Shown here: positions 16,584 to 58,424 of the stretch, in pieces
Position numbering within the stretch: position 1 is the first letter of the stretch
How the letters are laid out: each line of letters begins with the position of its first letter
DNA from: Bolinopsis microptera
Lineage: Eukaryota > Ctenophora > Tentaculata > Lobata > Bolinopsidae
DNA: 64,000 nt
Reading direction: 5' to 3'
NCBI RefSeq assembly: GCF_026151205.1
Contig: NC_087073.1
Span: 19,992,837 to 20,056,836, forward strand
The notes under the pieces: model-generated
Database searches by the model: none
The model's input: only the letters and a program-made list of their open reading frames with translations
What the model was told of the DNA's origin: nothing
Program-made: the position numbers and the translations under genes

Positions 16584-16811
16584 ATGAGGTCTACCAAGAT
16601 GATAATTCTACTGACCCTCGTTGCGCTAATAGCTTCCAGAACCCTCGAAGAAAATGGTCAGACTATTGGATGGGGCCGGAAAATAGCCGCGGCAGAAGAG
16701 GTTGTTGGAGATCGTGACACAATTGCAGATGGAAGGCTCGTTTTAGGGATGGCAGAAGAGGAGCAAAGCCTCGGACTAGGTTACGGGGAAGAACGACAAA
16801 TTTTAGAATAA
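16584..16811 (+). CDS. Small secreted acidic peptide, QxxGxG family, member 1
   Basis: Uninterrupted 75-residue frame; I chose the ATG at 16584 because the hydrophobic core MIILLTLVALIAS follows directly as a signal peptide. The predicted mature part is acidic and has no cysteine. It carries two related motifs: QTIGWGRK about eight residues after the likely cleavage site, and EEEQSLGLG near the C-terminus. Trp-Gly-Arg-Lys resembles an amidation plus dibasic cleavage site, so a short amidated peptide is possible (inference). An AATAAA lies 138 bp past the stop. The CCACAG near 16474-16479 could be the acceptor of a 5' UTR intron. It is the first of four frames spaced about 1.0-1.2 kb apart. 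I recognise no known family. Confidence 0.75.
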   Translation: MRSTKMIILLTLVALIASRTLEENGQTIGWGRKIAAAEEVVGDRDTIADGRLVLGMAEEEQSLGLGYGEERQILE

Positions 16812-16948
16812 GTGAAGTACATCACCTGATGAGAGGGCCTATGTCATGGCCCAACTTTACGGCCCTTTCTTTCAAGGAATGGCCGGGAACTTAAGTCACG
16901 CAGCATAAACTGTGATCTTGTTATTTTCATTGCTTGCGTTTACCAAGG

Positions 16949-16954
16949 AATAAA
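16949..16954 (+). promoter_or_regulatory. Poly(A) signal AATAAA
   Basis: Canonical hexamer 138 bp past the stop of peptide member 1; the spacing suits its 3' end. Confidence 0.5.
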
Positions 16955-17325
16955 TGATTTCACGGTCTTAAATTGATTCTGAGATTTTTTTTAACCGCAA
17001 GTCGGTATTTGGGATTTTGTTATAATCATGATACTAGATTACGCATTTTGAAAATAAAGCATTATTACTCTAATCAACCAAGGATGTGAAGTGTGAACAC
17101 TATGATCTCACCTTATAAATCCGTAAAAATTAATTGCATATCAACTGGATCATTACTGTACGTAAATCTGCTTGAAAACAACATTTATTTTTACAAATAG
17201 TAGATGCCACTTGTAGCTTTGTTGGGCAGCCAGATAATTTCAAAATTTTCTTTGAAAAATTGCATGTTTGATCAGTGTATGCACATTGTTCAAAGATGGT
17301 ACATTATATTTATAAAAATTATAAA

Positions 17326-17450
17326 AGATCTTTGAAGTTTAATTAATTTAGCAATAATTTTCGTTGGTCGAAATTTAGAAATTATAGTTGATCTTTGTAG
17401 TTTAAATTTAGTATATGATCGGCGATCATTTTTGTTGGTCGAAGTTCAAA
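17326..17450. repeat. Imperfect tandem duplication of about 62 bp
   Basis: Two adjacent diverged copies of a segment running from GATCTTTG through AGTTTAA to TTGGTCGAA, between peptide members 1 and 2. Confidence 0.6.
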
Positions 17451-17660
17451 ATTTTTAAAGGCTTCGTACTTGTAGAAGCATTTTGAGGCTTACATAAGGT
17501 TTTCGGCAGGCTACAGCACCTCTTCAAATCTGTACAAACATTTTATGCTTATTTAGTGTTGTTGATTTTACGTATGTCAGCAAATTTATTCAGTCAATAT
17601 ATTTACATGAATTACATCTATTATAATATGCTGATTCGAACCATTTTTCCACCAGTGTGG

Positions 17661-17667
17661 TATAAAA
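17661..17667 (+). promoter_or_regulatory. TATA box of peptide member 2
   Basis: TATAAAA lies 94 bp upstream of the ATG at 17755. That distance leaves room for a short 5' UTR and suggests an unspliced transcript. Confidence 0.5.
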
Positions 17668-17754
17668 AACTAACAGAATCACAGCAGGATTAGGAGAAAG
17701 TTGTGACTGAAGCAAAGAGGAAATTCCAATAAACAACAAGACCTATTTTACGTC

Positions 17755-17982
17755 ATGCCACTCACCAAGATGATCATTTGCTTTAGCCTTCTGTTAGTGG
17801 TGACCTCCACAACCTTCGAAGACGATGGACAGACCTTTGGATTGGGGCACAAGGTTCTCTGGGCTGATGCACTTGCAGAGGAAAACCTTGAAAAGGAGGT
17901 GCCACTCAAAGCAGGCGGGTTAGAATCTACAGAAGAAGAACAGCACTTTGGTGTTGGAAAGCGTGCTGACGAGAGTACCTAG
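17755..17982 (+). CDS. Small secreted acidic peptide, QxxGxG family, member 2
   Basis: Frame of 75 residues, the same length as member 1. The signal peptide MIICFSLLLVVTS is followed by TTFEDDGQTFGLGHK, and the C-terminus has EEEQHFGVGKRADEST. The GKR here is a canonical amidation plus dibasic processing site, giving a possible QHFGV-amide; this is inference. There is no cysteine after the signal peptide. At the DNA level it shares the AAGATGAT-A/C-ATT start and the GG-x-CAGAC-x-TTGGAT core with member 1, so the two are tandem duplicates. A TATAAAA lies 94 bp upstream. No known homologue recognised. Confidence 0.75.
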   Translation: MPLTKMIICFSLLLVVTSTTFEDDGQTFGLGHKVLWADALAEENLEKEVPLKAGGLESTEEEQHFGVGKRADEST

Positions 17983-18755
17983 ACAGTGGTAGCTTGGTCT
18001 GGAGCAAGATGTGGCTGGATGTTCATGTCATCTGAACACCGCCTCCATATCTAGACTGGGAGTAAAGGGGGTCCGCCGCCTTTTGATGCCACTTTGCACT
18101 GTACAAACGGCAAAATTTGGTTTAATCTGCTTCTTCCCTTGGCTTTAGTATCAAACAATAACCGACGAAAGAAAAATATGTGCATATTTGGCTATTTTGA
18201 AGTTTAAGACATCCTTTGCTACTGCCATACTTATATTTATATATTGCTGTAAAGGTTTGGTGATTTAAGATGAGCATCTGAATCCCTCACCCCACCCCCT
18301 AAAACATTTCAATCTCTGCTGATATGGCACAATACAAGCGATTCATAATATTTGCCATTTTTACTTTATATTAATTTAGCGTTAACGATCATGGGGGTGA
18401 TTGAAGTAAACTGGTATAGAGGATAAATGACAATATCCATGGATCGCAAAGATTATTATTGATATGTTTTTTGATACAATTGTTTCGTATCTATCGGCCT
18501 AAAGCCAGGCATGTATTATAACTGTATACTATTACGTTTGTATGCTAAAATAACGTGTGTTCACTGCAAGTCTAATTAAACAGAATTACTGATAAATTAC
18601 CATAAATTTAAAAGATCTATAATTTTAGATTTTGGATTAAGGGTTCTTCCAGTTGAAATTGGCTATTTTTAATTGATCGGAATTTCAGTATTTAAGAGTA
18701 GCTACAAATGTTTAAAATGTGTTTCTCTTCAGGATCCCACAGGAACACAGCAACA

Positions 18756-18959
18756 ATGGGAAAAACGAAGCTACTTTTAAATTTAACAGCGTGTTTTACG
18801 GCTTCGCTGGTTTTAAAAAACGTACAAGAGAGTGAAGAGCTTAGAAAGCCCGAGTTGCTGATTGGTTTGAAGACCTTTTCGAAGTGGAAACGCACATGTT
18901 CGGACGGTAGCGAAGCACTACAACTAAAACTGATCCTTGCCGAACATGATATTGATTAA
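18756..18959 (+). CDS. Putative diverged member of the secreted peptide cluster
   Basis: A 67-residue frame starting MGKTKLLLNLTACFTASLVL, which looks like a signal peptide. It sits about 1.0 kb after member 2 and 1.14 kb before member 4, just where the spacing predicts another copy. The rest is rich in charged residues but lacks clear QxxGxG motifs; only ELLIGLK recalls them weakly. It could be a decayed copy, a fast-evolving gene, or a chance frame. A TTCAG before 18733 could be an acceptor. Confidence 0.35.
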   Translation: MGKTKLLLNLTACFTASLVLKNVQESEELRKPELLIGLKTFSKWKRTCSDGSEALQLKLILAEHDID

Positions 18960-19050
18960 ACAAGTGGCTCACAGTGGATTATGGAAGTGGACATTTTTCA
19001 TAAATATAAGTAGAACTGATTTTAACTTTCATGATTTATAGTGTTTAGAT

Positions 19051-19431
19051 CAGGCTTGTCTGCCGCCACCGAATGCCGCCTGGTTATTTGGCCACGCCGA
19101 ACGTCGTCGATACAACCGGCCTGGCGTAAAGCGGCTTGCTTCTTTTGATTTTTCGAAATTTTCAAATCTTTCAAATATTTACTTTAAATACGCTGCCATG
19201 CACTATACTGCTCCAAACATAACGATTTTCTGTAAAAGAAAATGTAATACTAATTGGACTCACTGCACCTTTTATTTTATTTTAAAGTTTGAAAATCAAT
19301 TTTGTTTTCAAACACAGCAATTACTGAATAGCACTAACATTTACTTTAACTTGATTTCACTCCGGCACCGGTGTTACTGTTATTTTGGTCAACGCCGCCA
19401 CCGATCACTTGAACCACGGCGGACAAGCCTG
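19051..19431. mobile_element. hAT MITE with 8-bp target duplication
   Basis: A 381-bp element starting CAGGCTTGTCTGCCG and ending with the near-complement CGGCGGACAAGCCTG. It is flanked by identical 8-bp repeats GTTTAGAT (19043-19050 and 19432-19439). CAGG-type ends with an 8-bp duplication are diagnostic for the hAT superfamily. It has no coding capacity and lies between the third and fourth members of the peptide cluster. Confidence 0.9.
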
Positions 19432-19892
19432 GTTTAGATCTCGGATCGTCATCCGAATAGCTTTGATGATGCAATTTTTCGAAAATATATATATGTTTTG
19501 GGCACAATTGTTAGGGCAAATTCGACCTGTCGCGTCGAAGGGAAATCTCCCATTAAAACATTAAGATCAATAACAGTATCAGATTGTTTGTATCATGACT
19601 GTCGATGAATTTTAATTGTCAATTCAACCACGACCCACGATTTGACAAAATTGAATAATTCCGCTGTTATTTCCATCTATTTATATATTAAATTTATCAT
19701 ATTCCACGATTTTTATTGAATGAAAAGTCAGCTCCATTTCCAAAATTGTTGTCCTCTGTGTCTCTGAGATAATATATCGGTTATTGAATATAGTTTTACT
19801 GGTGTATTTGATTTATATTAATCCAATTTAAAAAACAAACCACACTCGTCTAGGGATGAAAAGAAGATAAGACTTTACAAAAAGATAAGAAC

Positions 19893-20111
19893 ATGTGCAA
19901 AGGAATCCTCTGCTTAACCCTCCTTGCTCTGGTCACCTCCTCGACAATAGATGATAACGACCAGGCCTTCGGATTAGGAGTTAAAACTGGCTTGTCTGGG
20001 GAACTTTCTGGAGATGCAGACTCGATATTTGGGGGAGTAATCTTGGAGATGGAGGAGGAGCAGGGGTTTGGATTTGGCAATAAAGAAGAAATTCTCATTG
20101 ATCTGACGTGA
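19893..20111 (+). CDS. Small secreted acidic peptide, QxxGxG family, member 4
   Basis: A 72-residue frame. The signal peptide MCKGILCLTLLALVTSS is followed by TIDDNDQAFGLGVK and, near the C-terminus, by EEEQGFGFGNKEE. Both motif copies are recognisable, but the basic residue after the first is displaced (GVK) and the second reads GNK, so amidation sites are less convincing than in members 1 and 2. The mature part is acidic and lacks cysteine. No TATA or poly(A) signal could be assigned with confidence; the nearest AATAAA is about 360 bp downstream. Confidence 0.7.
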   Translation: MCKGILCLTLLALVTSSTIDDNDQAFGLGVKTGLSGELSGDADSIFGGVILEMEEEQGFGFGNKEEILIDLT

Positions 20112-20892
20112 CCGTGTTATTTTATGAATTTTACTAAGCATATAAACAGGACACTGCACATTTGTCTTTAATAATCGAAGGAGTATCTTACTCCTCGATA
20201 CTTTTTTGGGAAAAACGTTTATTGAATTGTTTAATGTGTTATTTTTGATGATATTTCCTGCATTAAAAGAATTGTTCTTATTTGCTTACCGCATAAATGT
20301 ACAAATTAGAAATCAATTTGGTTTTGAAATAGTAATAAATGATGAGATCATAATTACAAGGGGGGGGGGGGGGGGGGGGGGGTGGGGGGCAAAAGTCAGT
20401 ACCCATACGTTGGCCTTAATAGCTCAGTCACTGTCACTGAGTGCCCAATTGAAATTACAATTGAATTCCATGCAATAAATAAAACACACATTATTTGGAG
20501 ATAGGCCAAGAAATAAGTTTACTCTCGCAGGAAACAAAAACTCGCACACAGTAGACTATAGACTTATAGAGTGTAGAACATGTTGTATGCTAAGAAAATA
20601 TGCCCTCAAAAATAAAATAAAACAAAAAGAAATTGTTTAAAGATTTACGTATTGGACGAAATCGCAAACCCAAAAACATAAAATTAATTTAATTTAAAGA
20701 TTTGATTTTTTAATTAGTTTCACCAAATTCAAATAAAAAATATCTTCTAATGAATTTATCACTAATTCAATGTTCCTTCATTTTATATTTAATCTAAATG
20801 TAGCTTTAAAAAATCTTTTAGTTCGAAGGGCCTAAAAATTGATTCGAAATTGTCCGGTCCATCGCTGCTCAAACATATAACTTTAAATGTCC
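20112..20892. other. Intergenic
   Basis: AT-rich sequence with no gene seen, between the peptide cluster (+) and the tentative 3' end of the lectin/sushi gene (-). It contains the poly(G) run at 20360 and AATAAA words near 20475. Confidence 0.5.
20360..20382. repeat. Poly(G) run of 23
   Basis: Uninterrupted 23-G run followed by T and six more G, about 250 bp past the stop of peptide member 4. Confidence 0.9.
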
Positions 20893-21048
20893 TTTAGTTT
20901 CGCTAGCTCATCATGAAGTGCCTCATTAGCTTATTGCTTTTTGGAATATGCAGTCTTTTCACAGTAGTTGATGTTCTTTGTTACTCAACTATAAGCGTCC
21001 TGAAATTATCAATGTAAAAATATGTTCCAGTACAACAAAACAATTATT
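20893..21048. repeat. Local duplication, copy 1
   Basis: This segment matches 22247-22378 in the same orientation, sharing TCGCTAGCTCATCAT, CAGTCTTTTCACAG-like sequence and the stretch ending GTTCCAGTACAACAAAA. On the minus strand both copies start with the same AG acceptor context (GATAATTTCAG), so the duplication may include the terminal exon of the lectin/sushi gene. Confidence 0.75.
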
Positions 21049-24000
21049 TCAACATTGATCACCAGTGTCACAACTCACAAAGTTAATTACCAGTGTCGCA
21101 AAGTTAATTACCAGTGTCACAAAGTTAATTACCAGTGTTACAAAGTTAATTAATTATATAATAACTTAAATACTATTTTCTGCTGATTTCAATCCTGTTT
21201 CCACCCAAATGTCATTCTGTAAGTGTAATCACTGTGCTCAAGATTCTCCATAAAGATTTAAAGTAGTTGGATTCTAAATAATATTGGATCATGAGCAGTT
21301 CAATTTGAGAAGAAGATTTTCTTTGTCTTACCTTGTGTGGAAGAAGGAACAGCTCCTTCCTGCGGTGTCTGTATGATACATTAGGATCGTTTACAACAAT
21401 AAACCTGCAAATTTCCTTGTTAAATGTGACATTAAACCATACCCTGGATTGTTGAGAGATATCAATGTTAGAATTTCGTCTCTCCCTCAGAAAAGCCAGT
21501 TTAAATTCAAAATCACAGATTAGCTAAGATGAAGGTACTTTAAAGAATCAATTCTTATGTTTGAGAATTATTGTGAACAAACTCGGAAAGAGCAGAAAAA
21601 TTCCCCAACATTAAATTGTCAGTGACACAAGGCTAATAGTAATAGTTAAGTACTATAAAACGCACAATCATTCGATCAAAAGCTTGTGTGTCTTACCATT
21701 AACTTACACTTAATAGGTCCGTGTTAGTACGCTTGTTATCGTCGAAAAGAATCTGATCCGCTTCATGACGAGAGTTGCTAATAAGCTCCGAGAAATCTCT
21801 TCAGCTTTTATCTTTTTATGATATAAGGAGTCTACGTCCTGTGATGGTGAATTGTTGCGAATTTTTACTCGACCATGTGGAGAAATATCTGATAGCAAGA
21901 AAAACGCAAGAAAACGATAGCTAAACAAGGAAAAACATTAAAATTGTATTATGAGCTGCAAAAGGAATACGACGTGATACTACGCCAACATAAATTTCCT
22001 TCGTTCAATATTCCGTTGACTTACGTTTTCATGTTCTTAACTTATGTCGCCATCTTAATCTAGGATCGTACGCTTCTTTTTTACTGGGTTAACTGCATCT
22101 TGGAAAGAGTTGAACATTTGCATGTTACACTAATAAGTTTTTATGAATGTCAAATATCGACTTAAGTCTAGAAATATTTTACGACAAGATCTTAACAAGT
22201 AAATAAACAATGTTTTTAGGTAACTTACTTTATTGAATCTGGTGACTTAGTCTCGCTAGCTCATCATTGTACCTCATTGCTTTAGGAATGCAGCCTTTTC
22301 ACAGTTGTTCTTTTTTACTTAGTTATAAGCGCCTGAAATTATCAATGTACAATTTTGTTCCAGTACAACAAAAACTTATTTGCAATGAACTTGGTGTACT
22401 GAATTTTGAAGAGAATCGAATTATATTATACTAATGCAGTTTTTTCAATGTTAATCTTAAATTTACGTCTAAAGAAATGTTTTCGGAAGATTTCAAGAAG
22501 TAGGAAACAAATTTTTCTGGTCGCTAACTTACTTTATGGATTATGGTCACTGCAACAATATAATTCCATATTTTCTTGCGTCCCGGTTATAGTGGTCTGG
22601 TACTACTCCAGGGATCTTCGTGTGATCAGTCGAATAGTTAGCAGATTTCTTCATGACTCCATCTATTAGTTATCCTGAAAAGCAGATCAGTTGAACTTAA
22701 AGCACCGCGATCTTCAGCTATATAGGAGCTGATCATTATAACAGTCAATCAAATATTGATAATCGCTATTTAATTTCAAGAGCTTAAAAAATGTATGCCT
22801 TTATATTAAAAATTAATTTTTGATACGGCTCTTTTATTCTTTTTTAACGGTGCTGTATAGTCCCTAATATTTAGGCACGTACCGTGGTATTTGTTGGAGC
22901 TGAAATGTTCTTACTTGAGTCCGCACTATTTAGCTAAAATATAACTGATTAGAATTAATTTGGATTGATATCATGAAGTACCACTATTACGATATCGTAA
23001 TAGTGCTAATAATTATAGTGGTACTACCCGTATTGAAACTAAAAAACCAGTTCTATCAATTTCATATTTGAGATTGGGGACGGATCTCAAATGCAAACAT
23101 AAATATAATTGTAAATTGATTGTTTAGATTCTGAAGTGGTACCTGTTGAGTGTTGAAATTTTATGATTTCCTCCGTGTAACCTTCCTTCATTCTGTTTTG
23201 CAGTTTACCAACTGTCCCTGCAGAGAGTAATGTGTTATTCAATTAAAATAAGCTGAGTTTCACAATATCACTGAATTAGAATATTAATAATTGACCTCAT
23301 CAGACTATTAAATATTTGCCATTATCGAGAGTTTATTTCCTGAAACTATTTGATGCCCGCGAAAATTATTTCATATTACGTTATCGTTTCTGATCTTATT
23401 AGTGCTTACCGCCTGCAAGATTAAGGTCATCTTTCTTTCCGTGAGTAGAACCCCTTCAAGTTTCTTCGCTCTACTTTTTTTCTGAAATTTTAAACAGCTT
23501 CATGATTGCCTTATTAACCATTTTATACCAAGCATGATGTACATTTTCACAAAGAATTTGTTTATTTATCTAGAAACATGATTACTTGATCAATATTGTA
23601 CAGGATTTATGTTTCTAAATAACACTTACCTGGGGACCCCAGGCTATTATGTTCATGAACGAATAGAGATTCGGCGGAATGACAGGATGAGCGCCGCCCA
23701 GTAAAATAACACAACATTTATTGAAAATTGTATTCACTGATGACTGATCGCCACCATACTACTGCTAAAATTATATTTGTCGGTTCGTATGATATCTTTG
23801 GTAAGGAAAATATCTAAAATATAAACCTAAACCTATTCCAAAATTATTGAGGTGTTTTAATGTTCCAGATTTCGCGCCATGGCCTAGCCCATATATGTTC
23901 ATCAGGTTCTGTTGGCCAGACAGAACTAAAGTGTAAAATGTTTGTAGCGCCTAATCAGTCATCACGATCTCGAAATTTTTATTTTGCTCTGCGGTCTATA

Positions 24001-25224
24001 GTTTCCAAAGTAACTCGCACTAATAACGTGAAGCTCGCAGCATCTGTTTCTCGTGCATATAATATATTATAAGTATATATGTTTTACGACATAAATATTA
24101 ATTTAAATGTTTAAATGTTAATCATTAACTTAATAAGCTATCTTAATAAGCAGGTTAAACATACTTATGATTTCACAAAGTGGCGCATCATGGACAAGAC
24201 CAACTATCTCCCCATCCAGACACGTCACTTTTCCCCCTCTGTTGATGAACCCTGTTTCGCAATGTACCGTCATCAGGGTTCTATGTGCTACAGGAAGTCC
24301 AGGCTCCGTTGATGACACGTTCTTCAGGCTCAGTTCCTTGCAACCTTCGGTAGATATTGTAATTTTAGAATGTCATATTTTCGCGCAACTAGTAAATTGT
24401 CGTGAAATTTTGTCTAATGACGCTTTAAAAATATAGCTAATAGTATAACTCATGAAGCTATGACATGATATAATTTGACAGTTTCTGAATAATATATCTG
24501 GAGAAGCAACTTAAGATTAATGAGTTCAATAGACTACCTAATTGTGCGATGATCACTATTTCAAACACACCGATGAAATTCGACCCACTTATTTCTACAG
24601 TGTCTCCAAGTTTACATCCGGAGGGGACATAATCTCCAGGGATTGTGTTTTCATGGTACACTGTGAGGGGATAATTATCACAAGTATAACTTCCCTCACA
24701 GATACACGTGTCTCTAGAACAGGTGTACTGCGTGTTCTTTTCCTGTGTATAATAATGCACCACCTGCTTAATGCAGTGTTCCTTATCTAGGGACGCTCTA
24801 AACCAGGCCTTATTAAACCCTCCTGGTTTTGCAGAAGAAAGGGTGCTCAGATCCCTGTCTATAGCATTGTCTGCTCCACTCTTAGCCACGTTATCTTCCC
24901 AAGTCGCAGACTGAGACACAGAGGCAGGTGTTATCTCACCTGGTTCCTCTGGTCTTAGTGCACCTGAAGTAGTGAAAACTTCACATTATGATCATACTGT
25001 TTTCAATTAGTCAACTTAGGGAAATAGTGTGGATTTGAGTTGATTACAACTAAAATGTTATAAATATTGAGTAATCAATCGAAGGATTAACTTAAATCTA
25101 CCGCTACTATTAGCTATTATTTAAAGCACTGATATAATCACTAATTCGAGTGTATCACCAATTCACTTTTACCTTTGAGGCGTTGCCAGAGCAAAGCCGT
25201 AATGATGATTAAGGTTGCTTTCAT
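20985..25224 (-). CDS. Secreted fucolectin/discoidin-like plus sushi-domain protein, 3' part uncertain
   Basis: Well-supported minus-strand exons, 5' to 3': 25224-25173 (signal peptide MKATLIIITALLWQRLK), 24963-24538, 24344-24165 and 23217-23143; all their introns are phase 1, the usual pattern for extracellular modules. Exon 2 opens with VSQSATWEDNVAKSGADNAI and continues AWFRASLDKEHCIKQV, resembling fucolectin/F5-8C-type sugar-binding domains. Exon 3 encodes a short sushi (CCP)-like domain: CKELSLKN, VHCETGF, KVTCLDG, PLCE. Such proteins usually act in recognition or adhesion outside the cell. Tentative further exons are 21888-21710, 21404-21332 and 20999-20985; the first of these has an in-frame TAA at 21712-21710, so the gene may end there. 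No transmembrane segment was found. The overall span depends on these uncertain exons. Confidence 0.6.
21061..21153. repeat. 21-bp tandem repeat, about four copies
   Basis: Units of CAAAGTTAATTACCAGTGTCA with minor changes. It lies in the putative last intron of the lectin/sushi gene. Confidence 0.85.
22247..22378. repeat. Local duplication, copy 2
   Basis: Homologous to 20893-21048. The neighbouring segments 22190-22260 and 22485-22560 are also alike on the minus strand (both end with AAA followed by the donor-like GTAAGTTA), so this intron has undergone several small duplications. Confidence 0.7.
23625..23699 (-). repeat. Dispersed repeat, inverted relative to 33201-33289
   Basis: Read on the minus strand it runs GGGCGGCGCTCATCCTGTCA ... 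AGCCTGGGGTCCCCAGGTAA, matching the + strand at 33201-33289 with moderate divergence. It includes the palindrome CTGGGGTCCCCAG. Probably a fragment of an unclassified transposon. Confidence 0.7.
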
Positions 25225-26456
25225 GTTCGGGTTCCTTATGTCCTAATTTCTTAATATATGAAGAACAAGGGTATTATTTAATTTAATAAACAAATTATTC
25301 ACAAAAAAATAATGCATCGATGTTTATTGTTTAATGAGTAATTGGTATTTTAACATTAGAGATTTCGGTTCGACTATGTTCTCATTCTGCTGTTCTGTGA
25401 AAAAGGATGTATGTCAAGTTGATGTCTTTTGGGAAAATTGGACTAACATGTTGTTTGACCAATTATAGGGTCTGTCAGCTAACAAACTAACAAATGTGCA
25501 GGGTATCTTAAACATCCGCTACAGCTTAGCAACGAGGCAAGTGAGGAAAGCAAGTACTACTACTGTATACAAATGTGCTAAAAAGCTTAACCATAAACTG
25601 GTCTCCCGCACACTCAGATGCTGATTATGTTTGGCCCAATTGTATTTATATTTTGTCAACGTACTCGCATTACAATTAAAATATGCAGCAAAACCGACAA
25701 AAAAGGCTATAAAGCTATAAAATCTGACTATAGCACTAGCAAAGAAGACTACTTATAGCTTTCTTTCTGTGACGACAGGCTTTCTTATATTCAACGAATA
25801 TACTCCTCGAAATTAACACAACTCTACGATAGTGAATAGTGATGGGTGGTTATATTGGTTACCCCCCCCCCCCCCCCCCCCCCCATCATCACTCATCAGT
25901 GGCTATAAATCTGGATATGGCTAGGCTGAATAATTCTTCAAGTAGTACTCGATCGTAGCCTTTAAATAGTGTCTTATAGAGTATAGACGCTATGTCTTTG
26001 CAAAACTGATTAGGGAGGAAAATCATGAATAACAACTGATGAAGCTTTGTTAGCAAATTGCCGACGGTTTTTTCAAAGTACCTCAAGAATAAATTACTAT
26101 TAGACAGGCAAATTAGGTTTTTTTCTTCCTTTCAAAATATCACTAGAATAACCTGTTATGCCAAATAAATATATAGGCTTAGACTAGGGTCCGTCAGTTA
26201 ACAATGCTTTATCAATTATCATTCATGATGCTCCCCTTAAACGATAATTGGCTAATCAGTTTAAAAAATTGCATACAGTATACTACAGTATACTTTTAAC
26301 TTCTTGAAGACGCCTTTACCAGTGGTTAGGGGTACCGATGCGAATCGGTAATTTTAACGACATAACGGACACTTTAAGTTTATGCACAATTTACACTTAA
26401 CGCACGGATAACACAGGGGTAACCATATGTATACGAGTTATGGCTATTATCTTAAC
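25225..26456. other. Intergenic
   Basis: No gene seen. It holds the presumed promoter of the lectin/sushi gene (minus strand), a poly(C) run at 25862-25884, and a pair of TAGGGTC(T/C)GTCAG words at about 25467 and 26185. Confidence 0.5.
25862..25884. repeat. Poly(C) run of 23
   Basis: Uninterrupted C run. It is the last of eight long G/C runs, all in the first 26 kb of the window. Confidence 0.9.
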
Positions 26457-26601
26457 TAGGAACCGACCGGAAATCCGGCTGAATCCGGTTCCGGCCGGAT
26501 ATCCGGCTTCAAAATCCGGTTCCGGTTCCGGCTCCGGCTGGAAAAAAAATTGCCGGATTTTTGCCGGATTTCAGTTTTTTTACCGAAAAAAAAATCAAAA
26601 A

Positions 26602-27660
26602 AATATTTTCGGCTAATAATGAACAGGGTAGCCTGAATCGTGGAAAAAAAGTGGTTTTCAGAAAAACTTTTTAAAAATGTTGACTTAGAAGTTTTTCGGT
26701 CCGAGTCGTTCTCGAGACGTACCTCCTGTATCGAGAGCTCCCGCTTCCGAGCTCGTGTTGCAAAGGGGAGGCCTGCCTTCCAAGATCACATTACCGGGGG
26801 GAAACCTCGAGTCCAGAATTGTGTATCGATGGGTAGGTGCGGACTTCGAAAAACCGAAAAAATATTTTCGGCTAATAATGAACAGGGCCGGGTAGCCTGA
26901 ATCGTGGAAAAAAGTGGTTTTCAGAAAAACTTTGAAAAATTTTGACTGAGAAGTTTTTCGGTCCGAGTCGTTCTCGAGACGTACCTCCTGTATCGAGAGC
27001 TCCCGCTTCCGAGCTCGTATTGCAAAGGGGAGGCCTGCCTTTCGAGATCACATTACCAGGGGAAACCTCGAGTCCAGAATTGTGTATCGAGGGGTAGGTG
27101 GGGACTTCGAAAAACCGAAAAAATATTTTCGGCTAATAATGAACAGGGTAGCCTGAATCGTGGAAAAAAGTGGTTTTCAGAAAAACTTCGAAAAATTTTA
27201 ACTTAAGTTTTCGGTCCGAGTCGTTCTCGAGACGTACAGCTCCTGTATCGAGAGCTCCCGCTTCCGAGCTCGTGTTGCAAAGGGGAGGCCTGCCTTCTGT
27301 GATCACATTACCAGGGGAAACCTCGAGTCCAGAATTGTGTATCGAGGGGTAGGTGGGGACTTCGAAAAACCGAAAAAATATTTTCGGCTAATAATGAACA
27401 GGGTAGCCTGAATCGTGGAAAAAAGTGGTTTTCAGAAAAACTTCGAAAAATTTTAACTTAAAAGTTTTCGGTCCGAGTCGTTCTCGAGACGTACCTCCTG
27501 AGTCCTGTATCGAGAGCTCCCGCTTCCGAGCTCGTGTTGCAAAGGGGAGGCCTGCCTTCCGAGATCGCATTACCGGGGGGAACCTTGAGTCCAGAATACA
27601 GAATAGTGTATCGAGGGGTAGGTGCGGACTTAGAAAAAACCGGAAAATATTTTGGGCCAC
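26602..27660. repeat. Four internal ~258-bp tandem repeats of the hAT element
   Basis: Units start with AATATTTTCGGCTAATAATG at 26602, 26861, 27122 and 27377 (spacings 259, 261 and 255), and a fifth partial start lies near 27646. Each includes TCGTTCTCGAGACGTAC, GCTCCCGCTTCCGAGCTCGT and AAAGGGGAGGCCTGCCTT. Reading frames of 60-90 codons in the units differ between copies and are not conserved proteins. Confidence 0.92.
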
Positions 27661-28062
27661 CTCCCTGGGCTAGCCCCCGGCTATAATCGCAAAATTTGCA
27701 GTATTAAATCTTCTGATTATGAAATACGAAATATGAAGGTCACGTGTTCAGGGTCTGGGTAGCTACTTAATTAGCTCATTACTGCAATCATGTGACTCAG
27801 CTCTAGACGCCAGACGGTGATTAGTACTGTACTAGACAGTGCCTGCTTACGAACAACCTTATTAAGCACCTCTGGTTGTAAGTCACGTGACCCAATGATA
27901 CTCAGACTTGCATGAAAAAAAGGGAATTCGCACAAACGCGCTCAATCAGGGGTCTGGCAGCATATGCCAATTAGATATCATTTCTGATTATTACTCGTCT
28001 AGTGTCGTGACTCGTGTCTACTCGTGTTACATTGTGTCTGCTACGTACTGCTTGTTTAAGCA

Positions 28063-28310
28063 ATGTCTAGTATAGTAGATAGGAAGATTTGTAAAAAAAC
28101 TATATCTGTTCGGACGTTGAAGCCGCCCTAAGTCGAGTCGAGTAGTAGTAAATCTAAAACATCGTCCGTCTGGTTGTTCTACTCAGAAAAAAATGGGATC
28201 CCTTATGCAAGCTGCAAGAAGTGCTCGATGAAGATTAGGCGTGGAAAGGAAGGAAATTTTCCGGCAACATCCGGCTGCCTTTTATTTCACTCTGAAACCA
28301 CCGGTTCCGG
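28063..28310 (+). pseudogene. Relic of BED zinc-finger hAT transposase N-terminus
   Basis: From the ATG at 28063 the frame gives MSSIVDRKICKKTISVRTLK, then a TAA at 28129, then runs in the same frame into SSVWLFYSEKNGIPYASC, KKCSMKIRRGKEG and a final LLFH. The W, C-x2-C and H pattern matches a BED-type zinc finger, the usual N-terminal DNA-binding domain of hAT transposases. The frame then enters the terminal CCGG-rich region, so the catalytic part is deleted. Identification rests on the motif pattern only. Confidence 0.6.
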
Positions 28311-28418
28311 TCCGGCAAAATCCGGCTTGCCGGATTTGAGATCCAAATCCGGCTGAATCCGGTCCGGCAGCCAAAACCCCAATCCGGTCGGTTCCTAATC
28401 TTAACTAAAGTACATCAT

Positions 28419-28605
28419 TTGACTAAAGAAGAAGCTAAACCCAACCTTGGCCTTGGCCAACTGGAGCGAGGAGGATGATGAGTTTGAGGAGTTCCCGGTA
28501 GAAGAGTGGAAGCAGGAGGATACTGACCAGGCTGACTTGCCGTCCTCTGATTATCAATTACAGCTAGATTCCAACGGAATTGCCGGATTTGACCATGGAT
28601 CATGA
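28419..28605 (+). pseudogene. DSS1/SEM1-like pseudogene fragment
   Basis: From TTG at 28419 (where ATG is expected) the frame reads TKEEAKPNLGLGQLE. An extra C at 28467 shifts it, and the next frame continues EEDDEFEEFPVEEW. Together these match the start of DSS1/SEM1, the small acidic proteasome-lid and BRCA2-binding protein, whose hallmark is LGLLEEDDEFEEFP. The second acidic half (WEDNWDD) is absent; other sequence follows to the TGA at 28603-28605. Lost start, one-base shift, truncation and lack of an intron suggest a decayed processed copy. It begins 13 bp past the right target repeat of the hAT element. Confidence 0.6.
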
Positions 28606-28759
28606 GCAGTTTAATTTGAGAAAGCGCTCGTTGTTAGTACTTGAATAATCATGTTTTAGGGTGCGGTATTAAAAATGTTTATTTTTTGATTTTCGATTTT
28701 GACCAAGAAACGATGAAAATAATTATACCCATTTTTCCAGCTATTATAATTGGACCTTA

Positions 28760-28829
28760 GGATTCGAACCAAAGGACCCAGTATGCAACCTAATAACCTA
28801 ACATCAGATCTAGAAACCTACCACTCTAT
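28760..28829 (-). other. tRNA-like pol III promoter remnant
   Basis: On the minus strand an exact B-box GGTTCGAATCC (28770-28760) is preceded by an A-box-like TAGAGTGGTAGG (28829-28818). I could not fold a convincing cloverleaf, and the spacing is longer than in most tRNAs, so a decayed tRNA or tRNA-derived SINE is more likely than a working tRNA gene. Confidence 0.25.
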
Positions 28830-30979
28830 TAGTTAGTACCACTTGACCTTTAGATCCACTCCAAAAGACCTGGCATGTTACTTTACTATCCGAGATAGTT
28901 TCAATGGTAAGAAAAACAGGGAATGAGCAGACCATAAGTCAAAGTGAGTAACGGCCAATGCAACCCATCATACTGCGTCTCCTAAATACACAAAATCCAG
29001 GGCCAGGGGAGTCAGAAGGATGTCACTTTGAATGTTTTATTCATTAACCTGGTCGAATTGAGATGAGCAATTTAAATTTTAAGCCGTCAAGGATATCTTG
29101 AGTGGTAGGAAATTTTGACATAAATTGTAACTGGGGGAGGTTGCCCATCGCGTAATTGAATTATTCAGAATATCTATCCAATAAAACCTTATCACTGAAT
29201 CACGTGACTTGATTCCATGTCCGTTATTGGCCCTCAGGAGGCTGCGTACTATAATGCTCCATATTCACGTGACTTGATTCCATGTCCGTTATTGGCCCTC
29301 AGGAGGCTGAGTACTATGCTCCATATGCACGATAACCAGGTTTTGTGCGAGCAAATTTTATCCCGGAGAAACTTTGTGAGTTGACATAGTATTAGAGATT
29401 TGTTTAAAGAGCTCATCTTTGAGCACTTGTCTACTTGGCGACAAGTATTCAACTTCAAAGCAAAGGAGCTACTCCTTTAATATACGTACGGAGCCGAGAG
29501 GAAGTTTTTGCAGGGAAACCTTAAGTGTCACCAAAATATATGAATCTGCGTTAATTGCTCGGGGTAAATTGCAAGGACCTTTTAAAGTTATGCTCGGTAA
29601 ATTTCCTTTACTGAAACTATTAGTATTAAGTTGACAACCATGGATCATGGAGATATGTGTGGAAATTTATTGAAGTGTTTAGTCTTTTTTATGGGACATG
29701 TTTTTTACCCATATTCCTATTGTACAGTTTATGCATACCATTTATTGAACAACCAATTAATTAACGTGTAGTTTACGTCTTTTGGTCTGCCAAGTAAAGT
29801 ATTGCCGCAAAGTTAAAGTATCAGCAAGCCCGAGGGAAATACCATTTTATCACGATCAAGTCAAGATATTGTGGGACTTCCATATCCAGACCGACCATGT
29901 TAATAGTTAGGCCACGTGGTACCTACTCCTTTTTACTAAGTGTTTTACTCTTTTTCTGAACTCTAGAATGTGACTGAGGAGTGAATATATTTGTCCTAGT
30001 ATTTTTTTTAAAGCTTGACGGTGCCAGGCGGTTCTAATGACCAATTAAAACATACAAAACAATAGTGAATAATAATCCCTCTGTTCAGGGCACTGCACAC
30101 TATATGGGTCATGTATAGTATGAAATCACCCCAACACTTCAATAGCCTACAATGAAATCAAACCAAAATATTGCGAAAACTATGAAGTTTTGTGTGCTCA
30201 TATGGAACGAAAACAGAAAAAAACTAGTATACCAATAAACTAATATAGTAATCGGCTGCAAGTACACACATATCTATTATCTACGGACTACGCATATGTA
30301 GGGACACACACACACTAAAATTAATGGAAATAATTACCGGACTTTATTATTTACAGACCTTAATGCCACAGACATTATTTATACGGACGTATTCACTAAA
30401 GGTCTTCGGCGTGAAAGAAACATTCGTGATAATTATGACCGATAAGGTATGTCGTACTCTGCAGATAATGGGACTATAGGTAGGTAGTCAGTTGCTAAAT
30501 CAGGCATTGTAAGTGTAACTTTGTCTCCAGTCCCGAGTGAGTATCTCTAAATAATTTAAGTTAACTCCTTATATTTCTTAACAGTGAGACGGTAATGTAA
30601 TTGTTTCGGTGAATCTATTGCTAACTTCTATTCGTATTTTGGTTGTCCAAAATGAAATTAGGCTAGCGTACAACATAATTTCTTTAATAGTGAAGGTATT
30701 TTAGACCCTGGATCTAATTATCTGATTGGTGCTAATTGCACAAGAATGATCTGTGTCTTGAGGACTACATGTTATTTTGAAGTTTAATCAGATGAACAAC
30801 CTGATTAGCAAGTTGTAACAAAGGAAATGCTGCAGGTCGCACAACGAGACGAGAAAAGTAGGTCAGACTCGTCATTACGACGTGAGCAGTACAAATACAG
30901 CATACGAGATAGCGATCCTCACTTATATTTCCATTAAATCGTATCTTGCAGCAGCTCTCTTTATTCGCCAAACTACACC
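28830..30979. other. Intergenic
   Basis: No gene recognised apart from the 65-bp duplication. The last part holds the upstream region of peptide member 5; TCTTGCAG just before 30952 could be the acceptor of a 5' UTR intron. Confidence 0.5.
29201..29327. repeat. 65-bp tandem duplication
   Basis: Two adjacent nearly identical units, each starting CACGTGACTTGATTCCATGT and containing TTATTGGCCCTCAGGAGGCT. The second lacks three bases near its end. Confidence 0.95.
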
Positions 30980-31186
30980 ATGATGAAATTCACCAAGACT
31001 CTTATCTGCCTGACCCTTGTGGTCCTTGTCACTTGCAGAGCCCTCGAGGAGGACGACCAGACCATTGGTTGGGGCAGAGCAGAAGCAGCTGAGGGAAGTA
31101 TGGATCAGGGAGCTGTTGAGATGGAGCTTGCGGAGGAACTTGAGGATCAGCACCTTGGTCTCGGATCAGGAGAGGAAATATTTTAG
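30980..31186 (+). CDS. Small secreted acidic peptide, QxxGxG family, distant member 5
   Basis: A 68-residue frame. The signal peptide MMKFTKTLICLTLVVLVTC is followed by RALEEDDQTIGWGRAEAAEG, and the C-terminus has EDQHLGLGSGEEIF. The QTIGWGR motif is identical to member 1, so this copy, about 11 kb away, belongs to the same family and is closest to member 1. Gly-Arg after Trp could be an amidation plus monobasic cleavage site (inference). No cysteine after the signal peptide; the mature chain is strongly acidic. AATAAA at about 31478 may be its poly(A) signal. Confidence 0.75.
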   Translation: MMKFTKTLICLTLVVLVTCRALEEDDQTIGWGRAEAAEGSMDQGAVEMELAEELEDQHLGLGSGEEIF

Positions 31187-36297: not shown

Positions 36298-39200
36298 ATG
36301 ACAAGTTGGATGGTATGGAGTTTGTTGGTGGTGATGTGCAGAGCGGCAGGGGGAGAGTCAGCTGAGGATCAAGTGGTAGAGTTTGAGGACAGCAATGATA
36401 CAGATCCTTTTGTGGATGACTTTGAGGATATTCCGTACAGGGGAAATATCCCGTCCTTCATCTCGGTTAGAACTTATTTTAATTGTTTGAAAAAACTAAA
36501 TAGTTTTCCATAATAAAATGGATTAAGCTAAAATTTTGATTTTTTTTGAAATTTGTAATTCAAACCATTTCTGAAATACATGATTGTATTTTTCAGCCGC
36601 TTCACTACGGTATAGTATTAAAAGCGAACCTGAGAGATTGGGTTTACTCCGGAAGGACGCACGTGCTTATAAACAGTAAGTTTAACACCATAAGAATGTT
36701 CCAAAACTGAAGAGATACAAGGCTGGTGCAGGGCCGGTGCAGGGCCGGTGCAGGGCCGGTGGCAAACCACACCATCAATCCGTGCAGCTGTATTCTGTAC
36801 CACAAAAACCTGCAATATTTAACTTTACGTTAACTGCAAAATTATATTGTTGCGTGCACACTTCCTCTCATTTAGAACATTTCCACTTCAATTTAAAATA
36901 TTACGTTAACCACGTCATGTGTTTGCCCTGCTTCCAGTACCATGACCCCTGTCACAATTTCAGTCACTGAGCCGTGCGACCAAGTGCCTATTCACTCTGC
37001 TGGATTAAACATCAGCGACGTTTTCATGGCGACATACGAGCCGGAGGGGCGAGGCAGGAGAGTTCCGATCATGCAAGTGGTAGAAGACAAAAACCAAGAA
37101 CTATTGCGGATTTATCCCCGTAGAATTCTTTATTCTGGAGTATATCAGCTGTTCATTGATTTCAAGAACGAGTTTGTTTCTGATTTGTTTTGGGGGTTTT
37201 ATCAGAGCAGTTGGACGGATGAAAAGGGCTGGAAGAACAAAATGGTGACCACCCAGTTTTCACCTTACTGGGCTCGACACGCCTGGCCCTGCTACGATGA
37301 ACCTAAATATAAGGCAACGTTAGTAAAAAATCAATCCTGTAATAGTTTTAGCGTTTGAGTAATGCAAGGTAGACAAGGTGAAAATGTGAACTTCAGAAAG
37401 CTCATTTCAAAACTCAAAATTATCAAATGACCACTTTATTGGTGTCATGCTTTGTTAGAAAAGAACAACATTCTCAATTTCAGGTTTAAGTTTTTCGTTG
37501 ATCACGAGTCACAGTACTATGCCCTGAGCAACGGTGCTCAAGAGTCCAGAGAACCGATACGGTCGGGCTGGGTGCGGACCACTTTCGAAAGGACCCCTGA
37601 AATGAGCACCTACATTACTGCCATGATTATTACAAATTACAGGTACCATACCATTACCAACTACTCAACTACCACTATCACTACCAGCATGTATTTAAAT
37701 AGGATCTGACATGTTACTTTTGAGTTGACATGATATTTCTGACTAGGCAATGGGGGAGGGGACTGGTGAATGAACTTCTAAAATTCTGGGGAAGTCAGAT
37801 CACAATCTCATGTGGGGTATTCATTCATACTTTAAACTTAAAGAGCAACCATTTAAACTAAACACTAATTTAGCTGAGAAGTATAATTTATGACAGTATG
37901 ACTGTAGGGATATCAAGGGAACGACAAAATCTGGAATTCCTGTTAAACTGTACGGGAGTCATGAAAAGCTACAGACCAGTCGGAGGATGCTTGACACAAC
38001 TATAAAAACTATAGACTTCCTTGAAGAATACTTTGGGTAACGTTATATCTACTGTCTGCGTTTTACTTATTTTCTTGACAAATTAGCTAAAGAACGCATG
38101 ATTTGCGCCGTATTCCGTACAGCCTAACCTCATTAGCAGCCCTCAACCTCTGATTTTTACAATCTTCTCATCATCCTCTCTCTACTGATAACGTAACGAC
38201 CTCAAGGATATTTCAGGGTAGAGTACCCTATGAGCAAATTAGACGTGGTACCTGTACGGAGATTTGGGGTGGCTGCTATGGAAAACTGGGGTCTCATAAC
38301 AGGTAATTCCGAATCACACCACACACGGGCCACCGGGCTGGACCAGTTTCTGCAGAATTCTTGGCTGTAGCTGATCTGCCATGACAAATGATGATTTAAG
38401 GAAATTTTACCCTGGAGCCAAACTGTATCCTGGATTTCGATTCTCGTAATTAGAAAGGCGTGATACTCAACATCAGTCAATAAATATCGAACTTTTAACA
38501 CGTTCGACAAATTTTAACAAATTTGTCAAACTTTTGTCCAGTGGCCTGAACTTGTACAATCGAGCAGATTTGTTTTTTAAATCTCTCCATCAATGCAATG
38601 ATCAACTATATGATAATGGTCAACCATGAGTTGACAGTCAAATGATAAACTTGTACAATTTAAATGAGTTAACAAGTGTTATACGCCAAAAATCACAGAT
38701 AAGATTGGACTGACAGAACTATACTATTACAGTCCTTGATGTTTTTGATTTCATATTAAATTACCATTACTAGTTTGAAACGTACTGAAAAAAACGTATA
38801 ATTTTATCTTGATTGCAAGGATCTTCACAACTTATTGAAGTATTAACGAGATTTGGTTTTCACACGTTCGCGTTTGCAACTTTCCCGCTCTTTTTCCAGC
38901 CTGCACAGTGCACATATTGATACAGATAAAATATGTTGACAATAATGAATAATGTGCATGATTTAAGTTTTTCGAATGTTTGGATATCATATTACGCTTA
39001 TCTCATTGAGATTGTAGGAGAAAAATGTATTATAACCAGTAAAGCTAAGTACAAGAAATAAGATATTTCGATTATTGATTTGGATTTGGCGACAAAAGAA
39101 AACAGTAGGAGTATATTTTCTGAAATTCCAGAGTCGAAGACTTTCATGAGCTTCTAATTTTTCAATTTTTTTGAAAAGCAATAAATTAAATCAAGATTAA

Positions 39201-53802: not shown

Positions 53803-54957
53803 TGTTACTTTGTAGGGTTTCATAGAATCCTCTATCGGGCCATCGAAAAAGTCGACCCCCCCCCGGACAGTGTAGAAACTGTTTTATCACCACTCCAATC
53901 AAGCAAGGAGTTTCCATTCCGACGGCTGTATCCTGGAGCTGGAGGCTCGTCCGGAAATGACTTCACAAAGTTCGTTAAAGCTGCTTTGAATTGCATAGGA
54001 TCCTCGATGGTGTGCATATGTGTTGGGATTACATTCCATAATCGAGGTCCAGTGACTGCAAATGAGTTGTCGTGTAGTGCTTGATTACGTTGACTGCTGG
54101 ACTTAGCTATACTGGGCACAACTGCTTTTTGACCATGTCTGAGAGTCACCGAGAACTGGATACCAATATCATTAGGGCACTTGCAATGCAGAACTTTCCA
54201 CATGTTGATGATTAAATACCGTTCTCTTCTTCTTTGCAATGACATCAGATCTAGGGCCTTTAATCTCTGCCAGTAGTTGAGGTGCTGGGTGCCATCTATT
54301 TTCGATGTAAACTTACGCTGAATCCCTTCTAGCTGTTGGATGTCCTTGTTCTTAGAGCAATTCCACAGAGGACAGCAATACTCCAGATGGCTTCTAACGA
54401 GAGACTTGTACAGAGTCATCATGGTGGCTTTGTCTCTCGTTTTGAACGCACTTAGCACCCAAGAAGCAACTTTTCCTGCGCGTTCAGCTATCCTGTTGAC
54501 GTGTGGGGTCCAGGACAAATCAGCGGAAACTGTCACTCCTAGATCTTTCACCGTTTGAGTGGGGTACAGCATGTTTCCGTTAGACACTTCATATGTTTGA
54601 GCTTGGATGGCGAATGGATGATCAAACAAGGAATTCTTTGGACAATGCTTGTGAACAAGAAGCTCAAACTTATCCTCATGAAGGGCCATGTTGTTGCACT
54701 TAGCCCAATTAACAACAGAGTTGAGATCATCCTGCAGGACATCTTTGTCGGCCAAACTGTAGATATGCTTAAGAATCCTAGTGTCATCAGCAAAGAATCT
54801 GATGACAGACCCTTTAACACATAGCTTCATATCATTTATGAACAGAATGAATAACAGTGGCCCAAGAACGGTGCCTTGTGGAACTCCACTGAGGATTGCG
54901 GCAGCAAACGATGATACACCATCTAACACAACACATTGCTTCCTTTCAGTCAGGATG
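53803..54957 (-). mobile_element. 5'-truncated CR1/jockey-like non-LTR retrotransposon
   Basis: Minus-strand frame from about 54957 to 53832, some 375 residues, contains the C-terminal half of a reverse transcriptase: TERKQCVV, SGVPQGTVLGPLLFILFIND, the catalytic FADD variant of YADD, then the LGVTV-DLSWTPHVN and YKSLVRSHLEYCCPLWN blocks usual in jockey/CR1 elements. The endonuclease and RT N-terminus are missing. The 3' end has no poly(A) but an AAAGTAAC/AAAGTAAG microsatellite, as in CR1/L2-type elements. The second macro-unit carries the empty site near 58505, which fixes both ends within a few bases. Confidence 0.88.
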
Positions 54958-55200
54958 TAGCAACTGCATCAATAACGAGCGGAGGAAGTGATGATGATAT
55001 CGATACAAAGTATTAAATTAATATTAGAATTCTTAAATGCAGACTCTGACAAGGCGGTGTTTAAGATTAATTTGTGAGAAAATGTAATGGTTTTATGAAA
55101 AATTGGTAGTTAGGCTGACTTTACTGTTACAGTGCAGTTGAAAGGGTCTATGATTCGAACTTTGAAGTTAAAGAAAACTAAAAATACAAACCCAGTTGAC
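54958..55200. repeat. Flank unit before satellite array 1
   Basis: Matches 58506-58770 almost base for base, apart from a short AATAATAATA insertion and a few changes there. Both lead directly into the satellite through AAATACAAACCCAGT(T/C)GACTATGATCAG. Confidence 0.92.
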
Positions 55201-58200: not shown

Positions 58201-58424
58201 GACTAGCTGATTACTATTGGGCCCGGAGAGGGAGACTACGATCAGACTAGCTTAATACTATTGGGCCCGGAGAGGGAGACTACGATCAGACTAGCTGAAT
58301 ACTATTGGGCCCGGAGAGGGAGACTACGATCAGACTAGCTGAATACTATTGGGTCTGGAGAGGGAGACTACGATCAGACTAGCTGAGTACTATTGGGTCC
58401 GGAGAGGGAGACTACGATCAGACT
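55201..58424. repeat. 44-bp satellite, array 1 (about 73 units)
   Basis: Perfectly periodic 44-bp units: GACTACGATCAGACTAGCTG, then AATACTATTG, then GGCCCGGAGAGGGA. Variation is confined mostly to two sites: GAATAC/GAGTAC/GATTAC/TAATAC and GGGCCC/GGGTCC/GGGTCT/GGACCC. A variant block starting GATTAC-GGGCCC then TAATAC-GGGCCC recurs at 56185, 57373 and 58209, spaced exactly 27 and 19 units, so blocks of units have been duplicated. Stops occur in all frames; it is non-coding. Confidence 0.97.

What the first reader, a model, noticed from the sequence alone, without database searches (positions are those of the whole stretch)
16584..31186. Apparently undescribed family of small secreted acidic peptides
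Four single-exon frames (16584, 17755, 19893, 30980) of 68-75 residues share a signal peptide, an acidic cysteine-free chain and motif pair QTIGWG-type / EEQ-x-LGLG-type. Conservation of motifs against a diverged background indicates selection. I recognise no known family.
Basis: partly seen in the sequence, partly recalled or inferred. Interest (0 to 1): 0.85.

Follow-up and report, generated by a model that had tools for sequence, protein, structure and literature searches.

The report
Comb-jelly neuropeptide precursor gene cluster
Four neighbouring small genes in what is very probably a comb-jelly (Bolinopsis) genome look like precursors of tiny amidated signalling peptides; one carries the sequence of a published Bolinopsis peptide, FGLa, so this is an unusually clustered set of relatives of a known peptide rather than an unknown family.

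Summary
Frames at 16584, 17755, 19893 and 30980 are homologous 68-75 aa secreted acidic proteins, each with two motifs Q-x-x-G-[LWVF]-G. Two further members lie outside the window (98 aa on C2, 187 aa on C5). Genome statistics fit the ctenophore Bolinopsis microptera apart from scaffold count, and a frame close to the Bolinopsis mikado NPWa peptide is present. The 19893 frame encodes D-QAFGL-G; QAFGLamide is the C-terminal sequence of FGLa, an amidated peptide found by mass spectrometry in B. mikado (PMC9525235), and [D/E]QAFGLG occurs once in this assembly. So these are most likely FGLa-kind neuropeptide precursors: signal peptide, acidic residues, Gln (pyroglutamate), four residues, Gly as amide donor. 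D against its relative E gives dN/dS near 0.25; no transposon or Pfam match. 'Undescribed family' is not supported for the family as a whole. The QTIGW-type paralogues are not named in the text I could read, but supplements could not be opened. Processing of the second motif and expression are untested. Checking discarded matches also turned up two other multi-copy precursor kinds elsewhere in this genome.

The parts
16584..16811 (+). Member A, 75 aa: signal peptide, then ...EENG-QTIGW-G-R..., second motif EEE-QSLGL-G-YGEE
   Evidence: frame; homology, motifs; genome search, QTIGWG pattern
17755..17982 (+). Member B, 75 aa: ...EDDG-QTFGL-G-HK..., second motif EEE-QHFGV-G-KR (the only second motif followed directly by a basic residue)
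19893..20111 (+). Member C, 72 aa: ...DDND-QAFGL-G-VK..., second motif EEE-QGFGF-G-NK. Most likely the FGLa precursor of this species
   Evidence: the only [D/E]-Q-A-F-G-[L/F]-G place in the assembly; QAFGLamide as antibody peptide for B. mikado FGLa
30980..31186 (+). Member D, 68 aa: ...LEEDD-QTIGW-G-R..., second motif EED-QHLGL-G-SGEE. Closest to the two members outside the window; its flanks align with those of member E
19959..19979 (+). Codons for D-Q-A-F-G-L-G in member C, the stretch that matches the published FGLa C-terminus plus amide-donor glycine (genome place C2:20012795-20012814)

Best explanation
The four frames are single-exon coding regions of paralogous neuropeptide precursors of the ctenophore FGLa kind, in a genome that is most likely Bolinopsis microptera. 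Shown by sequence: an N-terminal hydrophobic signal, an acidic stretch, and one or more copies of Q-x-x-G-[L/W/V/F]-G. Inferred from published processing in Bolinopsis mikado and Nematostella: the precursor enters the secretory pathway, is cut next to acidic residues before Gln and at or near Lys/Arg (or acidic residues) after Gly, Gln becomes pyroglutamate, and Gly becomes a C-terminal amide, giving peptides such as pQAFGLa, pQTIGWa and pQTFGLa that are released from secretory or neuron-like cells and act on receptors. Member C would give FGLa itself (at least its C-terminal five residues; the exact N-terminus of FGLa was not readable). The second motif may give a second peptide; that is the weakest step.
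For: Member C encodes DNDQAFGLGVK; QAFGLamide is listed as the C-terminal structure used for the B. mikado FGLa antibody, and FGLa is among the peptides identified by mass spectrometry. The antibody peptides except RWFa are identical in the distant ctenophore Vallicula, so QAFGL should be expected here. [D/E]QAFG[L/F]G has 1 match in the assembly, 0 of the reversed control. QTIGWG has 9 matches, 0 of the reversed control; 8 lie in A, D, E and F. Of 17 motifs in six members the residue before Q is Asp/Glu in 14 and Gly in 3; of 11 first-type motifs the residue after Gly is Lys/Arg in 9, and Lys comes one residue later in 2. Member E has QTIGWGK four times. Other precursors in this genome have the same unit grammar with acidic residues on both sides: EEQARPIG-LEDS and relatives, 13 and 9 QARPIG copies, only 5 of 13 and 1 of 9 directly followed by Arg/Lys, which makes a second motif without a basic residue less of an objection. 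Cu2_monooxygen (amidating-enzyme type) matches exist. A frame reading PGSDIKLAPGGGNPWGRK then stop is close to the B. mikado NPWa peptide. Genome statistics fit B. microptera. PMC9525235 reports basic and acidic cleavage sites and pyroglutamation in B. mikado. D-E dN 0.097, dS 0.388, one-sided Fisher p 0.001.
Against: No transcript or peptide evidence from this species. In member C a Val stands between the donor Gly and Lys, and in B a His, so cutting there is not the textbook Gly-Lys/Arg. Five of six second motifs lack a basic residue directly after Gly. The near-identical units of E are recent DNA-level repeats, and F amplified a different segment (AEGNMGGGAEL, ten copies), so repeat number alone does not show selection for peptide dose. 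Without the acidic residue the QAFGLG pattern has 4 matches, with 2 of the reversed control; one of the other three (C10, L039) reads QAFGLGKR, but in a 21-codon frame inside GGGTTT-like repeat DNA. The published precursor (B. mikado) and ML030511a could not be read, so orthology of member C is not tested by alignment. The paper's table gives 346 scaffolds, here 232 contigs. The NPWa match is weak by E-value (0.09) and the VWYa half of that query found nothing. Two of the three amidating-enzyme matches span stop codons, as exons across introns might. The authors of PMC9525235 saw FGLa only in cells without visible neurites and speak there of short amidated peptides with suggested neuroendocrine function.
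Confidence: 0.85

Rival explanations
1. A family of secreted acidic proteins that act whole (for example mucus or structural proteins), the conserved motifs being binding segments and not peptides cut out of a precursor.
For: Second motifs of A, C, D, E and F lack a directly following basic residue, and acidic spacers are long; F has ten copies of a Gly-rich spacer.
Against: The Gly is fixed by the search pattern, but the basic residue after it in 9 of 11 first motifs and the acidic residue before Q in 14 of 17 are not required by the pattern; QAFGL agrees with a peptide found by mass spectrometry in the same genus.
Confidence: 0.08
2. Neuropeptide precursors of an unrelated, new peptide family (QTIGWamide), with member C's QAFGL a coincidence.
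For: Four of six members carry QTIGW, a string found in no paper of the held library.
Against: Member C aligns with A, B and D over its length; the QAFGLG place preceded by an acidic residue is unique in the assembly as searched.
Confidence: 0.05
3. Chance frames or fragments of a repeat family without function.
For: The window holds many short tandem repeats.
Against: Homology above shuffles for most pairs, reading frame kept in all six members, D-E changes fewer at nonsynonymous sites; family places are few.
Confidence: 0.02

Closest known systems
FGLa (QAFGLamide) of Bolinopsis mikado; Mnemiopsis gene ML030511a (PMC9525235: passages, sections 6 and 9 seen)
   Same: Member C encodes the same five residues followed by the amide-donor Gly and preceded by Asp; same genus by genome statistics; same processing logic (acidic and basic sites, pyroglutamate, amidation).
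   Different: Published precursor sequences were not readable here (figures and supplement). A, B, D, E and F encode altered peptides (QTIGW, QTFGL and others).
LRWamide precursors of sea anemones (PMC9545775: passages seen)
   Same: One W-amide peptide per precursor, directly after the signal sequence; pyroglutamate forms; one to four genes per species.
   Different: C-terminus is GW or GL here, not LRW; different phylum; no sequence relation tested.
PRWamide precursors of placozoans (PMC9545775: passages seen)
   Same: Asp or Asn before Gln, Gly-Arg after the peptide, several copies as in member E.
   Different: QPPRW peptides; 11-15 copies after a long leader; different phylum.
QARPI / PRNSRF / NIAW multi-unit precursors on C8 of the same genome (found here; no literature search made)
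   Same: Signal ending ...GRSLEE, then EEQ-xxxx-G units in acidic context; N-terminal 45 aa score above most shuffles against A, D and E (2, 4 and 1 of 1000 reach it).
   Different: Many units per precursor and other peptide sequences; against B, C and F 168, 127 and 25 of 1000 shuffles reach the score, so homology is not established.

Membership tests
Ctenophore FGLa precursor | Encodes QAFGL followed by Gly | tested here: met
   Member C only; B encodes QTFGL-G, E and F encode QHFGL-G in the second motif
Ctenophore FGLa precursor | N-terminal signal peptide | tested here: met
   Hydrophobic 12-residue stretch near the start in 6 of 6 members; a hydropathy measure only, no SignalP
Ctenophore FGLa precursor | Cleavage context: acidic or basic residues on either side of the peptide | tested here: met
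   Acidic before Q in 14 of 17; Lys/Arg directly after Gly in 9 of 11 first motifs but 1 of 6 second motifs
Ctenophore FGLa precursor | Sequence orthology with ML030511a and the B. mikado precursor | not testable with these tools
   Those sequences are in figures and supplements; the only held paper with the gene name is PMC9525235
Ctenophore FGLa precursor | Mature amidated peptide in tissue; expression in apical organ and pharynx cells | not testable with these tools
   Reported for B. mikado; no data for this genome
Host is Bolinopsis microptera | 13 chromosomes, 265 Mb, largest 26.2 Mb, N50 20.8 Mb | tested here: met
   264.65 Mb; C1-C13 15.2-26.2 Mb (258.07 Mb together), C14-C23 below 0.2 Mb (C24-C232 not looked at); C1 26,206,493; N50 20,825,282 against Table 1 of PMC11797021 (passage). 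Scaffold count differs: 346 against 232
Anthozoan LRWamide family | C-terminal LRW (IRW, MRW) amide | tested here: not met
   No such motif in the six members (sequences)
Transposon-encoded frame | Many dispersed copies, mobile-element domain | tested here: not met
   Six family places; Pfam: 0 of 4 window members match at E 0.1 or better, best 0.11

The most novel reading that the evidence does not exclude
A Bolinopsis-lineage expansion of the FGLa gene into at least six genes, three of them within about 3.5 kb, in which the last residue of the peptide has changed (Leu to Trp, Val or Phe) and most precursors release two different amidated pentapeptides, one beside the signal peptide and one near the C-terminus: a ligand family diversified by gene duplication in a phylum whose nervous system may have arisen on its own.
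Probability: 0.5. Interest if true: 0.55.

Novelty: new member of a known kind. Interest (0 to 1): 0.4.

Why it matters
Ctenophore neuropeptides bear on the question whether nervous systems arose once or twice. A tandem family with several altered peptides would give concrete ligands (pQTIGWa, pQTFGLa, pQAFGLa and others) to test on ctenophore receptors, and it warns that an antibody against QAFGLamide may see several related peptides (my inference). The kind as such is not new.

Tried and rejected
Cnidarian origin was my first guess. An anthozoan RFamide repeat typed from recall found nothing, which shows nothing by itself; the chromosome count then pointed to Bolinopsis. A STING family search meant for species identification rang nowhere, controls included. 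An ionotropic glutamate receptor frame against PDB gave kainate-type receptor chains best among the 60 rows shown, so it did not confirm the phylum.

Search with member E gave 29 rows; 8 are members A, B, D, E and F. The other 21 had been dropped as low-complexity, although 9 of them (8 on C3, 1 on C9) have E below 0.001. C10 (5 rows), C5:2154 (3 rows) and C8 (2 rows) are not family members but overlap or lie opposite other multi-copy peptide precursors (see Noticed in passing). QPPGLG there also fits the loose motif Q-x-x-G-L-G (22 and 17 six-frame hits), so that motif alone does not define the family.

Other QAFGLG places: L037 and L039 are frames of 23 and 21 codons; L040 is a longer frame with QAFGFG and, by eye, no signal peptide. 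The C88 QTIGWG match is an 8-aa frame.

E-F dN/dS over the whole alignment (0.091/0.405) and its Fisher test are not used: the repeat units are not aligned as true counterparts; outside them E and F differ by 6 synonymous and 3 other codons in 62, too few. For A, B and C synonymous sites are saturated or nearly so, so no ratio is given. Pooled pN/pS for A-D (first motif 0.22, second 0.36, signal 0.50, middle 0.71) rests on such sites. D and E flanks are 82% identical on both sides, less diverged than the synonymous sites (pS 0.30), so the selection signal is moderate.

No structure prediction was run: I did not expect short acidic precursors to fold.
Full report
Observation. Among 551 stop-to-stop frames of 40 aa or more in window 1-55000 they find only each other at E up to 1 (1.6e-15 to 3.9e-8). 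With the first 22 residues removed, 4 of 6 pairs exceed all 1000 shuffles; B-D and C-D are reached by 14 and 9. Four of the 551 frames have two Q-x-x-G-[LWVFI]-G motifs, these four; one other has one.

Family size. Genome searches with A, C, B and the outside member E give six family places. E lies at C2:9994735-9995031 (98 aa, L001) and F at C5:22459047-22459610 (187 aa, L002). E has QTIGWGK four times in EEDDQTIGWGKA-type units; F has QTIGWGK twice, QTSGWGR once and a Gly-rich spacer unit ten times. The DNA of the E units is nearly identical, so that amplification is recent.

What the motifs look like. Six members hold 17 motifs. The residue before Gln is Asp or Glu in 14 and Gly in 3. After the fixed Gly, Lys or Arg follows at once in 9 of the 11 motifs near the signal peptide, and Lys one residue later in the other two (B: Gly-His-Lys; C: Gly-Val-Lys). 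Of the six second motifs a basic residue follows at once only in B. Gln that can become pyroglutamate, Gly as amide donor, and acidic and basic cutting sites are the pattern described for Nematostella and Bolinopsis mikado peptides (PMC6756747, passages; PMC9525235, section 6).

Which organism. G000 has 264,652,675 bases; C1-C13 are 15.2-26.2 Mb and C14-C23 under 0.2 Mb. Table 1 of PMC11797021 (passage) gives Bolinopsis microptera 265 Mb, 13 chromosomes, largest 26.2 Mb, N50 20.8 Mb; here C1 is 26,206,493 and the N50 is 20,825,282. The table's scaffold count (346) differs from 232. As a further check, a frame on C13 reads PGSDIKLAPGGGNPWGRK then stop, close to the B. mikado NPWa peptide printed in PMC9525235 (section 9); the search E-value was weak (0.09) and the VWYa half of the query found nothing.

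Identity with a known peptide. PMC9525235 reports amidated peptides of B. mikado found by mass spectrometry, among them FGLa (Mnemiopsis gene ML030511a), and lists Cys-QAFGLamide as a C-terminal structure used for antibodies. Member C encodes Asp-QAFGL-Gly. The pattern for [D/E]-Q-A-F-G-[L/F]-G has one match in the assembly, at member C, and none of the reversed control. Dropping the acidic residue gives four matches, and two of the reversed control; the three others are not in plausible precursors, although one reads QAFGLGKR in a 21-codon frame in repeat DNA. PMC10826244 states that the antibody peptides except RWFa are identical in Vallicula (passage). So member C is most likely the FGLa precursor of this species. 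FGLa was seen by antibody in apical-organ and pharynx cells without visible neurites in B. mikado and in distal body tissue of Vallicula.

Selection. D against E: 62 codons, dN 0.097, dS 0.388, one-sided Fisher p 0.001; D against F is similar (0.103, 0.468; p 0.0002) and not independent. D-E flanks are 82% identical on both sides; D-F flanks 68% upstream and 81% downstream. This supports constraint on the protein, moderately. Among A-D, pooled pN/pS is lowest in the first motif (0.22) and highest in the middle (0.71), on nearly saturated sites. Pfam has no match better than E 0.11 for A-D; the A-D profile has no PDB match better than E 1.5.

Other precursors in the same genome. Two C8 frames (L048, 323 codons; L049, 164 codons) start with a signal-like MKIWAMLIPAM...GRSLEE and then hold EEQARPIG 13 and 9 times, followed mostly by L/V-E-D/N-S, with EEQPRNSRFG-DS and EEQNIAWG-LEES units in L048. 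Their N-terminal 45 residues score above most shuffles against A, D and E but not against B and C, so kinship is open. They matter here because units bounded by acidic residues on both sides seem usual in this genome, which helps the second motif. C10 and C5 hold frames with MTKV(L/F)CFLLVLGLIALTQC followed by QPPGLGRRSAEP repeats, and further frames with QQNGEPFVDFGKR repeats.

Mechanism. Shown: signal-like N-terminus, motifs, flanks, gene clustering, an amidating-enzyme-type domain in the genome (PF01082, 3 matches at E 2.3e-5 to 3.2e-5, two of them across stop codons). Inferred: secretion, cleavage, cyclisation of Gln, amidation, receptor action. Least sure: whether the second motif is cut out.

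Known or new. The kind is known: ctenophore short amidated peptides, FGLa in particular. QTIGWG and QTIGW occur in no paper of the held library. A search for GWamide-type names listed 4 papers, none on ctenophores by title and none opened for this. Searches on ctenophore neuropeptides (12 listed; 25 of 723 listed; 7 listed) showed no title about paralogous FGLa genes; most of those papers were not opened. Supplementary tables could not be opened, and B. mikado had 13 precursors, of which I count 10 by name in the text, so QTIGW-type genes may already be listed there. I therefore file this as new members of a known kind.

Noticed in passing
L048:947-1915 (C8:9612446 on) and L049:1024-1515 (C8:15651023 on), + strand: Two multi-unit secreted frames: EEQARPIG 13 and 9 times, with EEQPRNSRFG and EEQNIAWG units in the first, in acidic context, 5 of 13 and 1 of 9 QARPIG directly followed by Arg/Lys. 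They look like neuropeptide precursors (pQARPIa, pQPRNSRFa, pQNIAWa).
   Followed up: partly
L050:2125 on and 2543 on (C10), L051:1878 on and 3218 on (C5), + strand: Frames with signal-like start MTKVLCFLLVLGLIALTQC then QPPGLGRRSAEP repeats (9 + 13 and 10 + 7 copies in the two frames of each locus) and QQNGEPFVDFGKR repeats (31 and 21): dibasic multi-copy neuropeptide-like precursors, each locus split over two frames. 'PPGL' is not in the main text of PMC9525235.
   Followed up: partly
window 55198-63522: Satellite array of a 44-bp unit, about 189 copies, 94% matches.
   Followed up: no
window 6847-9167: 33-bp minisatellite, about 70 copies, which opens long frames on both strands (382 and 447 codons).
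   Followed up: no
window 36897-37355 and 40599-41042, +: Exons of an M1-family aminopeptidase (PF17900, PF01433), about 6 kb downstream of member D.
   Followed up: partly
window 53832-54968, -: Reverse-transcriptase frame (RVT_1), LINE-like by my reading, beside the 44-bp satellite.
   Followed up: no
L002:4048-4611: Member F has amplified a spacer unit (AEGNMGGGAEL) ten times while member E amplified the peptide unit: two different repeat expansions in sister genes.
   Followed up: partly
L041, about base 1531 of the minus strand (C13:11682731-11682793): Short frame ending PGSDIKLAPGGGNPWGRK then stop, the likely last exon of the NPWa neuropeptide precursor.
   Followed up: partly
G000 C3:15860547-15936263 and C12:11782391-11809362: Clusters of ionotropic glutamate receptor frames (part of 32 PF10613 matches).
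   Followed up: no
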